Source: Pseudomonadota bacterium (GTDB taxonomy: Bacteria; Pseudomonadota; Gammaproteobacteria; Steroidobacterales; MnTg04). From it: DNA of 34,985 nt. A program made the position numbers and the translations under genes. The notes under the pieces were generated by a model. That model saw nothing but the letters and a program-made list of their open reading frames with translations. It was not told the DNA's origin and did not search any database. This document shows positions 30,349 to 34,608 of this stretch, one piece after another (position 1 is the stretch's first letter; each line of letters begins with the position of its first letter). The stretch covers positions 1 through 34,985 of the forward strand of contig JACZVC010000028.1 in the NCBI GenBank assembly GCA_022572885.1. Reading direction: 5' to 3'.

Positions 30349-30395
30349 GGATATTAATACTTATCCGGCCATAGTTGCACTATAATGGCCGGGTA
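30343..30395. promoter_or_regulatory. Promoter and operator-like palindromes before fic
   Basis: ATGGCCGGATA (30343-30353) and TATCCGGCCAT (30362-30372) form a perfect 11-base inverted repeat around eight bases. A third half site ATGGCCGGGTA (30385-30395) begins inside a consensus -10 hexamer TATAAT (30381-30386). No clear -35 was found. A protein bound to the third site would block the promoter. The Fic protein has an N-terminal winged-helix domain and is the natural candidate to bind here; this is inference. Confidence 0.6.
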
Positions 30396-30416
30396 AATCG
30401 ACAACATCCGCATTTT

Positions 30417-31463
30417 ATGGCCAGGAACGCCCTCCGCAAAATTGTCTTCTCGCTGCTGAAAAATAGCTCGGCGCCACTTTCCCTGGCTCAAATTTCGCAC
30501 AGGATCGACGGGGAAGCGCCACCGCGAACGCTGCGCCGCTGGTTGTCCGCATGGGTCACAAAAGGCGCAATTGAACGTCTGGGCACTGGCCGCGCGACCC
30601 GATATCGATACCTGGTACGAGCCGAGGATGCCGCCCGCACGGTCACCGAATCACTGGGCTTTCTGAATGGTTTGGATAATGACTTGAAGGCGGAGTTGCT
30701 GGCACAGATACGAGATCTTTGGACACACACATCGACTGCCCTCGAAGGCAATACCCTATCGCTGGGCGATACCCACTTTATTCTTCAAGAAGGGCTGACC
30801 ATTTCGGGCAAGCCGCTCAAAGATCACCAGGAGGTGATCGGCCATGCCAGGGCCATCGAAATACTTTACCTTTGTTTGCTGGGACAGCTCACCGAAGCCA
30901 TCGTTTTTGCGCTGCACCTGGCGGTGCAAACGGCGCAGGTGACAGACACACAAAATCCGAATGGCGCCTGGAAAGTCGAGCCAAACGGTACCTACATGAT
31001 CGGACCCGATGGTACTCAGTTATTTATCGAATATGCGATGCCGTTTTCTGTTCCGGCGTTGATGACAGAAATCATTGACTGCATCAATGGCGTGAATCTC
31101 GCCAATCTGACAGCGGTTACGGCGCACAGGGACTACGCCAAAATTCATATGGGCATCGTACACATACATCCCTTTTGGGATGGCAATGGTCGAATTGCAC
31201 GATTGCTGGCAAATATTCCTTTGCTGAGGGCAGGGCTGCCTCCTCTTACAATCCCACAGGATCAAAGGCGTACCTACATTCAGATTCTGGCCAACTATCA
31301 AATTGCGATTGGACAACTGAATGGTGCAACTGGCGTCTGGCCGAACCCATCGCGGTTGATGGAATTCAGTCAATTTTGTGCGTCTTGTTACGCACCTACC
31401 GAAAAGCTGGTCGCTGCCGCATATGAGGTTCAGCGCAGGCGAGATCGACTAATCGAGGTGTAG
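30417..31463 (+). CDS. Fic domain protein with N-terminal winged helix
   Basis: The ATG at 30417 gives 348 residues. A winged-helix domain covers about 1-65 (PLSLAQISHRIDGEAPPRTLRRWLS in the sequence at 20-44). The Fic domain has the active-site motif HPFWDGNGRIAR at 251-262 and an inhibitory helix motif STALEGN at 106-112. It is thus a class II Fic enzyme held off by its own glutamate (E110). Such proteins transfer AMP, or another nucleotide part, to Ser/Thr/Tyr hydroxyls of targets. The target here is unknown and no antitoxin gene is adjacent, as expected when inhibition is internal. Base composition is lower in G+C than in neighbouring genes. It is inserted between the convergent cysS and folD with a duplicated folD end, a sign of acquisition. 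Confidence 0.92.
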   Translation: MARNALRKIVFSLLKNSSAPLSLAQISHRIDGEAPPRTLRRWLSAWVTKGAIERLGTGRATRYRYLVRAEDAARTVTESLGFLNGLDNDLKAELLAQIRDLWTHTSTALEGNTLSLGDTHFILQEGLTISGKPLKDHQEVIGHARAIEILYLCLLGQLTEAIVFALHLAVQTAQVTDTQNPNGAWKVEPNGTYMIGPDGTQLFIEYAMPFSVPALMTEIIDCINGVNLANLTAVTAHRDYAKIHMGIVHIHPFWDGNGRIARLLANIPLLRAGLPPLTIPQDQRRTYIQILANYQIAIGQLNGATGVWPNPSRLMEFSQFCASCYAPTEKLVAAAYEVQRRRDRLIEV

Positions 31464-32529: not shown

Positions 32530-32606
32530 CGGGGCATAGCGCAGCTTGGTAGCGCGTCTGCTTTGGGAGCAGAAGGTCGGGGGTTCGAATCCCTCTGCCC
32601 CGACCA
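32530..32606 (+). tRNA. tRNA-Pro(UGG)
   Basis: A full cloverleaf can be folded: acceptor CGGGGCA/TGCCCCG, D stem GCGC/GCGC, anticodon stem TCTGC/GCAGA with loop TTTGGGA (anticodon TGG), and T stem GGGGG/CCCTC around TTCGAAT (one G-T pair). CCA is encoded. It is 77 bases long. It is the first of a cluster downstream of the folD promoter region; its own promoter is not clear. Confidence 0.96.
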
Positions 32607-32645: not shown

Positions 32646-32710
32646 TACAGATATACTTAGGAGTGAAAAAAAGTAGCGCCCGTAGCTCAACCGGATAGAG
32701 CATCGGCCTT

Positions 32711-33354
32711 TGAGTGAGGAGCCTGTGCCGGGAAACTGAACCGGTACAGTGGACTGCACTGTAACGGGGAACCCTTAACAGGTAGTGCTGATGGCAATCC
32801 CGTGGAAACCTGTGGTTGACCCGTATGATGGTGTAGGACTCGGTCATGTCGACCGTGCATCACACCAAAGAAAAGGGCGACCTGGGTGTCTTAAAGGCTC
32901 AGATCGATCTATTCGAACAGGGGTTCACAATTCTGTTGCCATTAACGGAACACAGTCCGTTTGATTTGGCGGCTTACAGAAAAGGCGAATTCCGACGGGT
33001 TCAAGTTAAATATAGAACCGTTGATAAGTTTGGCACAATCCAGGTGAAGTTCTCCACATGCTGGACAGATAAGCATGGAACTCACACGGTACCAATTAAC
33101 AAAAGCGAAGTTGATTTGTACTGTATTTATTGTCCGGACACTGACGAGTGCTATTACCTGGAACCCGGCAAATTTCGTTCGAATGTATCGCTGAGGGTAG
33201 AGACACCCAAGAATAGTCAGCAAAAACGCGTTAACTTCGCGGCAGACTTTCGCAGGGCTCCGTAGAGACTATACGTGCGGCGCCTGTGACGGCGAAGAGA
33301 TAGTCCAGACCACAAACGTGCAAGTGCACGGCCGTGAAAACGGTAGTTGGTAAG
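32711..33354 (+). mobile_element. Group I self-splicing intron in tRNA-Arg(UCU)
   Basis: The 644-base intron follows a U and ends in G, as group I introns do. P1 pairs exon CCTT (32707-32710) with GAGG (32716-32719), giving the U-G pair at the splice site. P2 is a nine-pair hairpin (32723-32731 with 32741-32749). P3 pairs CTGCAC (32754-32759) with GTGCGG (33275-33280). P4 pairs ACGGG (32764-32768) with CCCGT (32799-32803). P7 pairs GACTA (33267-33271) with TAGTC (33301-33305), with the S-type sequence AAGAGATAGTCC. P8 is CGCC/GGCG (33281-33294). P9 hairpins include GTGC/GCAC and CCGT-GAAA-ACGG. P5 could not be placed with certainty. The ORF sits in the P6 region. The core resembles the Azoarcus tRNA-Ile intron. 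Confidence 0.93.
32846..33265 (+). CDS. Intron-encoded PD-(D/E)xK homing-endonuclease-like protein
   Basis: The 139-residue protein begins at the first ATG after an in-frame stop, with AGGA seven bases upstream. It has the small PD-(D/E)xK nuclease layout: an N-terminal helix with EKGDLG (9-14), D40 in SPFDLAAY, and Q53 and K55 in RRVQVKY. This resembles I-Ssp6803I, the endonuclease of the Synechocystis tRNA-fMet group I intron, in size, motif order and setting. Such enzymes cut the intronless tRNA gene and drive intron spread. Here the likely target is the tRNA-Arg(UCU) anticodon region. The TAG stop lies one base before P7. All core residues look intact, so it may be active. DNA cutting is not shown. 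A vsr-like or host nuclease is less likely given the location. Confidence 0.85.
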   Translation: MSTVHHTKEKGDLGVLKAQIDLFEQGFTILLPLTEHSPFDLAAYRKGEFRRVQVKYRTVDKFGTIQVKFSTCWTDKHGTHTVPINKSEVDLYCIYCPDTDECYYLEPGKFRSNVSLRVETPKNSQQKRVNFAADFRRAP

Positions 33355-33451
33355 CTAAGCCGAGGGTTGCAGGTTCGAGTCCTGCCGGGCGCGCCAATTT
33401 TTCGTTCGATTTATAGTTGTGAGAATTTATCTTTAGTACGACAAAAATAAT

Positions 33452-33528
33452 GGTGGGCGTAGCTCAGCTGGTAGAGCCCCGGGTTGTGATCCCGGTCGTC
33501 GTGGGTTCGAGTCCCATCGTCCACCCCA
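33452..33528 (+). tRNA. tRNA-His(GUG)
   Basis: The gene has the extra 5' G(-1) opposite C73 that is typical of tRNA-His, then an acceptor beginning GTGGGCG, D stem GCTC/GAGC, an anticodon stem CCGGG-type with loop TTGTGAT, and T stem GTGGG/CCCAT-like around TTCGAGT. CCA is encoded, total 77 bases. It lies 55 bases after tRNA-Arg. A small hairpin CGACC-TTC-GGTCG (33538-33550) follows without a T-run. Confidence 0.95.
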
Positions 33529-34068: not shown

Positions 34069-34608
34069 ATGACTACTTATATACGCAATCTCATCTGTAT
34101 CCCCTTAATCGTGCTATGTGCCTCTGCCGGCACGGCAGTGGCCGGGCAACTCGATCTGATCGTCAATGGGCGTTCGCACCACGTCAATTCGGACTACGAC
34201 TGGAACGAGAACAACTATGGCCTCGGACTCGAGTACCAGTACGACAGTTCCTCGCGCTGGCTGTGGTCGGTCAACGGCAACGCGTTCCTGGATAGCCAGA
34301 ACAACATTTCATACATGGCCGGCGGCGGCCTGAAGAGACGACTGTTGCAGTCGGAGCACCCGGCCGGTTTCTACCTGGATGCGGGGCTGATCGCGTTCAT
34401 TATGGCGCGCGCCGACATCTATGACTATCTGCCGTTTCCGGGCATTCTGCCGGCAGTGTCCTTTGGCACCAAACGCGTCGGCGTGAATCTGACCTATCTG
34501 CCGAAAGCTGCGGTGCGCGACTTCGCGCAAGCCAAGGTGGTGGATCCGAACATCGGCGGCGTATTCTTTCTGCAATTCAAATTCCGCCTGCGAAAACTGT
34601 CCCGCTAA
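34069..34608 (+). CDS. Small outer-membrane beta-barrel-like protein of unknown function
   Basis: The 179-residue product has a signal peptide (LICIPLIVLCASAGTAVA, cleaved about residue 25). The rest alternates polar and hydrophobic residues with many aromatics, for example NNYGLGLEYQYD, SRWLWSVNGNAFL and VGVNLTYLP, and ends in FFLQFKFRL, in the manner of small outer-membrane barrels that end in an aromatic-rich strand. The central YDYLPFPGILPAVSFG recalls PagP-like lipid A acyltransferase relatives, but no catalytic set can be confirmed. No clear ribosome site precedes the ATG, which is consistent with a leaderless mRNA. It lies between tRNA-Lys and a decayed tRNA-Lys fragment, so it may be accessory DNA. 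Confidence 0.65.
   Translation: MTTYIRNLICIPLIVLCASAGTAVAGQLDLIVNGRSHHVNSDYDWNENNYGLGLEYQYDSSSRWLWSVNGNAFLDSQNNISYMAGGGLKRRLLQSEHPAGFYLDAGLIAFIMARADIYDYLPFPGILPAVSFGTKRVGVNLTYLPKAAVRDFAQAKVVDPNIGGVFFLQFKFRLRKLSR

What the first reader, a model, noticed from the sequence alone, without database searches (positions are those of the whole stretch)
32676..33396. Group I intron inside the anticodon of tRNA-Arg(UCU)
The two exons make a standard 77-base tRNA-Arg(UCU) split between U34 and C35. The insert has the U-G splice pair, terminal G, P1-P4, P7-P9 and R/S-type core sequences of a group I intron. Bacterial tRNA introns I know of lie in Leu(UAA), Ile(CAU), Arg(CCU) and fMet genes; the UCU isoacceptor in a gammaproteobacterium is not one I recall. 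If this is the only UCU tRNA, decoding of AGA depends on self-splicing.
Basis: partly seen in the sequence, partly recalled or inferred. Interest (0 to 1): 0.85.

Follow-up and report, generated by a model that had tools for sequence, protein, structure and literature searches.

The report
Mobile self-splicing intron in tRNA-Arg(UCU)
A transfer-RNA gene in this bacterium is interrupted by a real, probably self-splicing group I intron carrying its own DNA-cutting enzyme, but such introns turn out to be widespread at this exact spot and were reported before, and this genome also keeps an intact spare copy of the gene.

Summary
Exons 32676-32710 and 33355-33396 form a 77-nt tRNA-Arg(UCU). An uninterrupted gene on another contig of the same genome (C32:4249-4325) is identical to the spliced product, which fixes the 644-nt insert at 32711-33354. 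The insert is a group I intron: 59 homologues support P2-P4 and P7-P9 with compensatory changes, including the P3/P7 pseudoknot, although Rfam misses it.

The intron is not unusual: the same insertion point (U34|C35) is interrupted in 55 further loci, mostly Gammaproteobacteria but also Bacteroidota, Acidobacteriota and Omnitrophota, and interrupted tRNA-Arg-TCT genes were reported in giant sulfur bacteria (PMC4853749). AGA decoding does not depend on splicing here, because an intact gene exists; in 26 relatives with the split gene, no intact copy was found.

The interrupted gene seems to sit, with extra tRNA-His and tRNA-Lys genes, in an integrative element inserted into tRNA-Pro: a 50-bp repeat plus an adjacent integrase, absent from a congener. 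Most likely a mobile intron recently brought in by that element. Splicing and homing were not tested.

The parts
32676..32710 (+). 5' exon of tRNA-Arg(UCU), ending at U34
   Evidence: Sequence; identical to nt 1-35 of the intact gene C32:4249-4325
32711..33354 (+). Group I intron, 644 nt; last base is omega-G (33354)
   Evidence: Insert relative to the intact gene; 59-sequence covariation
33355..33396 (+). 3' exon of tRNA-Arg(UCU), from C35 to encoded CCA
   Evidence: Identical to nt 36-77 of the intact gene
32708..32721 (+). P1: exon CUU (32708-32710) with GAG (32719-32721), U.G at the 5' splice site
   Evidence: Paired in 99.4% of cells in 59 sequences
32723..32749 (+). P2 (32723-32731 with 32741-32749)
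   Evidence: 98.5% of cells paired, 9 of 9 pairs with changes on both sides
32754..33280 (+). P3 (32754-32759 with 33275-33280)
   Evidence: 99.2% of cells paired, 5 of 6 pairs with changes on both sides
32764..32803 (+). P4 (32764-32768 with 32799-32803), enclosing P5
   Evidence: 100% of cells paired, 5 of 5 pairs with changes on both sides
32804..33261 (+). P6 (32804-32812 with 33253-33261); the ORF fills its loop and the last codons form its 3' strand
   Evidence: Sequence; P6a 87.7% and P6b 83.5% of cells paired
33267..33305 (+). P7 (33267-33272 with 33300-33305), G-binding helix, crossing P3; encloses P8 (33281-33284 with 33291-33294)
   Evidence: P7 98.9%, P8 100% of cells paired
33309..33351 (+). 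P9.0 (33309-33312 with 33348-33351) and P9 hairpins, with a GAAA tetraloop at 33336-33339
32846..33265 (+). Homing endonuclease gene, 139 aa, PD-(D/E)XK
   Evidence: PF11645 E 6.8e-40; profile match to 2OST E 9.1e-9; Foldseek best match 2OST I-Ssp6803I E 2.3e-10, TM 0.76; dN/dS 0.09-0.14 by YN00 to three relatives
32530..32606 (+). tRNA-Pro(UGG), the probable attachment site (left junction); repeat 32557-32606
   Evidence: 50 bp identical at C32:4174-4223, next to a tyrosine integrase
33453..33528 (+). Extra tRNA-His(GUG) of the same array
   Evidence: ARAGORN; a second tRNA-His lies on C32
33686..33762 (+). Extra tRNA-Lys(CUU) of the same array
   Evidence: ARAGORN; a second tRNA-Lys lies on C32

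Best explanation
A homing-competent group I intron of the bacterial tRNA type interrupts a supernumerary tRNA-Arg(UCU) gene at U34|C35. After transcription, exogenous G bound in P7 attacks the U.G splice site in P1, the exons are joined and a normal tRNA results (inferred, not tested). The ORF in the P6 loop encodes a PD-(D/E)XK endonuclease that most likely cuts intronless tRNA-Arg(UCU) genes and so spreads the intron (inferred from the family). In this genome the interrupted gene lies with extra tRNA-His and tRNA-Lys genes inside an integrative element inserted into the 3' end of tRNA-Pro, so it probably arrived with that element; the host's own intact tRNA-Arg(UCU) follows downstream of the element. 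Shown: sequence anatomy, covariation, intact copy, distribution, repeat and integrase. Inferred: catalysis, cleavage, and the linkage of the two contigs. The confidence given is for the mobile group I intron; for the element alone it is about 0.7.
For: Intact identical gene. Covarying group I core in 59 homologues. Split tRNA-Arg(UCU) in 55 named loci and a P7-P3-P8 motif in 19 of 369 gammaproteobacterial genomes with zero control hits; 19 of its 20 places are tRNA-Arg(UCU), the 20th a broken copy. Intron-bearing relatives lack an intact copy while 299 of 370 class genomes have one, which implies that the intron splices there. Endonuclease fold and constraint. Stages of ORF decay in the same order: 644 nt here, 418-453 nt with broken ORF, 227-319 nt in five others without a match to the endonuclease. 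Element: 50-bp repeat, integrase, AlpA, primase-like gene; the congener G376 has Pro-Arg-His-Lys-Leu uninterrupted and collinear with both contigs; the only full-length tig is on C32.
Against: No RNA or splicing data. Rfam does not recognise the intron. C28 and C32 are not joined in the assembly, so the element is inferred. A constrained endonuclease next to an uncut, identical target is unexplained: an active enzyme should have converted the intact copy.
Confidence: 0.85

Rival explanations
1. The split gene is a dying pseudogene: the intact copy has relaxed selection and the intron no longer splices.
For: An intact identical copy exists.
Against: All core helices are intact in this sequence, both exons are perfect, and the ORF is under strong constraint.
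Confidence: 0.1
2. No element: contigs C28 and C32 come from two strains or species wrongly binned together, one with the intron and one without.
For: C28 and C32 are unlinked; the tRNA-His and tRNA-Lys copies on the two contigs differ; the genome is a draft in 66 contigs.
Against: Contamination 0.25%; both contigs match the same congener locus collinearly, C28 ending at tRNA-Pro and C32 resuming from its 3' 50 nt; tig is found full length only on C32; an integrase sits at the junction.
Confidence: 0.12
3. The tRNA-Arg/His/Lys array arose by tandem duplication of the local cluster, with later homing of the intron into one copy, the integrase element being a separate insertion.
For: The order Arg-His-Lys equals the native order.
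Against: Spacers differ and the His/Lys copies have diverged (91% and 82.5% over aligned pieces), while the Arg exons are identical; the repeat ends exactly at the tRNA-Pro 3' end.
Confidence: 0.18

Closest known systems
Synechocystis PCC 6803 tRNA-fMet group I intron with I-Ssp6803I
   Same: tRNA group I intron of 655 nt with a 150-aa PD-(D/E)XK endonuclease (PMC1995217); best structure match 2OST
   Different: Host tRNA (fMet, not Arg-UCU), cyanobacterium; only about 24% identity in the structural alignment of the endonucleases
Interrupted tRNA-Arg-TCT of Ca. Maribeggiatoa (BOGUAY) and Ca. Thiomargarita nelsonii Bud S10
   Same: Same host tRNA, putative group I intron, Gammaproteobacteria (PMC4853749)
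   Different: Bud S10 gene span 324 nt, hence without a full ORF; in the text read, not described with an endonuclease, an intact second copy or an element
Cyanobacterial and plastid tRNA-Leu(UAA) intron
   Same: Anticodon-loop insertion; from memory the insertion point is also after U34, with a CUU/GAG P1
   Different: Other tRNA; not aligned here, so a lead only
Azoarcus tRNA-Ile(CAU) and Agrobacterium tRNA-Arg(CCU) introns (IC3)
   Same: Small tRNA introns of Proteobacteria (from memory)
   Different: Other host tRNAs; not compared by sequence here

Membership tests
Group I intron | P3/P7 pseudoknotted core with P4, P6, P8 | tested here: met
   Covariation in 59 sequences
[quoted passage not shown]
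   U 32710 with G in P1, G 33354
Group I intron | Guanosine-dependent self-splicing | not testable with these tools
   No RNA data
Rfam RF00028 (a curated model, not itself a defining property of group I introns) | Match to the covariance model at the gathering score | tested here: not met
   No hit here or on nine relatives; group I membership is rested on the core helices
Subgroup IC3 (bacterial tRNA introns) | IC3 peripheral and core signatures by alignment with Azoarcus/Anabaena introns | not tested
   No reference intron was aligned; tRNA host, GAAA in the P9 hairpin and small core are only suggestive
PD-(D/E)XK homing endonuclease (I-Ssp6803I type) | PD-(D/E)XK fold with conserved D and QxK motif | tested here: met
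   PF11645; D40, Q53, K55 invariant in 18 proteins; 2OST best fold match
PD-(D/E)XK homing endonuclease (I-Ssp6803I type) | Cleavage of the intronless target | not testable with these tools
   No assay
Integrative element at a tRNA gene | Integrase next to a direct repeat of the tRNA 3' end, absent from a relative | tested here: met
Integrative element at a tRNA gene | Both ends on one continuous sequence | tested here: inconclusive
   C28 and C32 are separate contigs

The most novel reading that the evidence does not exclude
A tRNA-integrating element acts as a carrier that brings an intron-bearing tRNA array into an intronless species, giving the homing intron a resident donor copy beside its target: an element-borne tRNA gene that is itself a mobile-intron vehicle.
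Probability: 0.45. Interest if true: 0.55.

Novelty: new member of a known kind. Interest (0 to 1): 0.4.

Why it matters
It is one member of a widespread, poorly annotated family: ARAGORN and Rfam both miss it, so genomes with it look as if they lacked tRNA-Arg(UCU). In about 5% of sampled gammaproteobacterial genomes the decoding of AGA probably rests on a ribozyme. This genome is useful because it shows donor and intact target together, next to relatives with intact, decayed and lost endonuclease ORFs: the homing cycle at one tRNA site.

Tried and rejected
Rfam on the window, on the region at E<=10 and on nine relatives gave no group I hit at this site. A phylum-wide pattern search used a wrong gap length: the known intact gene of G000 itself was missed, so that result is void and not used. 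No covariance model was built, because a model of about 225 positions would probably exceed the calibration limit; a motif search was used instead. A pattern for the 5' end of the intron found nothing in IMG/VR, and plasmids match only the 3' exon. The 23S intron of the same genome was not pursued as a relative: unlike this one it matches Rfam. The primary report of the Beggiatoa introns (MacGregor 2013a) was not read; its content is taken from PMC4853749. A related paper (PMC3697557) is not held.

Full report
Observation. The window holds tRNA-Pro, tRNA-His and tRNA-Lys by ARAGORN and Rfam, with an unannotated gap between Pro and His. In that gap 32676-32710 and 33355-33396 form a complete tRNA-Arg with anticodon UCU. 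The whole genome, 2.76 Mb in 66 contigs and 96% complete, has 48 tRNA matches; among those read is an uninterrupted tRNA-Arg(TCT) at C32:4249-4325. It is identical over all 77 bases to the spliced product. That is direct proof of the insert limits, and it rules out that this is the only UCU gene in the assembly.

Nature of the insert. Rfam's Intron_gpI does not report it. Homologues do the work instead. The ORF at 32846-33265 has a strong PF11645 match, and a search with it gave 8 of 369 gammaproteobacterial genomes, this one included, and 80 named loci. In 55 of these, plus four class loci, the ORF lies inside a split tRNA-Arg(UCU), nearly always between U34 and C35. A 59-sequence alignment of the cores gives the classical group I helices, with compensatory changes in P2, P3, P4, P8 and P9 and near-perfect P7. 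P3 and P7 cross, as they must in a group I ribozyme. The ORF fills the loop of P6, and its last codons and stop make the 3' strand of P6 and J6/7, so coding and ribozyme sequence overlap.

The endonuclease. The predicted structure (pLDDT 88.9) has the four chains of I-Ssp6803I (2OST) as its best matches in the PDB, and a profile finds the same protein by sequence (E 9.1e-9). D40, Q53 and K55 are invariant in 18 relatives. dN/dS of 0.09-0.14 by YN00 to three close relatives indicates constraint. I-Ssp6803I is encoded by a 655-nt intron in tRNA-fMet (PMC1995217), so the architecture is the same with another host tRNA.

Distribution. A P7-P3-P8 motif occurs in 19 of 369 gammaproteobacterial genomes and the reversed control in none. 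Nineteen of the 20 places are tRNA-Arg(UCU); the twentieth is a broken copy. In the same order nine more genomes have the split gene, two of them with recognisable broken ORFs. Among 27 intron-bearing genomes other than this one, of which 26 have a verified split gene, none has an intact gene by pattern, whereas 299 of 370 class genomes do; two of the 27 (G377, G422) have a D-loop variant that the pattern could miss, but a DNA search showed no full-length close copy there. This argues that the intron splices in those organisms. Here the argument cannot be used, since an intact copy exists.

Setting. In the congener G376, which lacks the endonuclease, one contig carries tRNA-Pro-Arg-His-Lys-Leu uninterrupted and is collinear with C28 up to the end of tRNA-Pro and with C32 from the last 50 bases of tRNA-Pro onward. 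Those 50 bases are identical in C28 (32557-32606) and C32 (4174-4223). Next to the C32 repeat lie a tyrosine integrase, an AlpA-like regulator and a DUF5906/DUF3854 primase-like gene. The simplest reading is an integrative element in tRNA-Pro whose left end carries the interrupted tRNA-Arg with extra tRNA-His and tRNA-Lys. The two contigs are not joined, so this is inference.

What remains open. Splicing and cleavage are untested. A constrained endonuclease beside an identical uncut target needs an explanation: recent arrival, low expression or a mixed bin. The IC3 assignment is likely but was not tested.

Prior knowledge. [quoted passage not shown] Maribeggiatoa and Ca. [quoted passage not shown] The host tRNA and class are therefore not new. 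The 2014 review PMC4033280 lists only cyanobacteria and alpha- and betaproteobacteria, so the wide spread shown here is under-appreciated, but this is a new member of a known kind.

Noticed in passing
G000:C17:19603-19809 (L031:1501-1707): A second group I intron in the same genome, in the 23S rRNA gene; it passes the Rfam threshold.
   Followed up: partly
L054 and L126; L108 (Nocardioides), L116 (Mycobacterium), L103: Relatives of the endonuclease lie outside any recognised intron, near an intact tRNA-Arg(UCU): possible free-standing homing genes.
   Followed up: no
L050 (G360); L074 and L082 look similar: Intron and endonuclease present but the tRNA-Arg exons are truncated, and G360 has no intact UCU gene by pattern; real loss or misassembly is open.
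   Followed up: partly
L104 and L190: The intron seems to sit at 36/37 (CUUCU|...G|AA) and not at 34/35 of the same tRNA.
   Followed up: no
window 30375-31463: Fic/DOC-family gene between cysS and folD; the corresponding stretch finds no match in the congener G376 locus.
   Followed up: no
window 34069-34608: PagP-like outer-membrane acyltransferase gene in the putative element, after tRNA-Lys.
   Followed up: no
L043:427-3499 (C32): About 3 kb between the native tRNA-Arg and tRNA-His seems to hold several similar small genes in tandem; the congener G376 has only a short spacer there.
   Followed up: no
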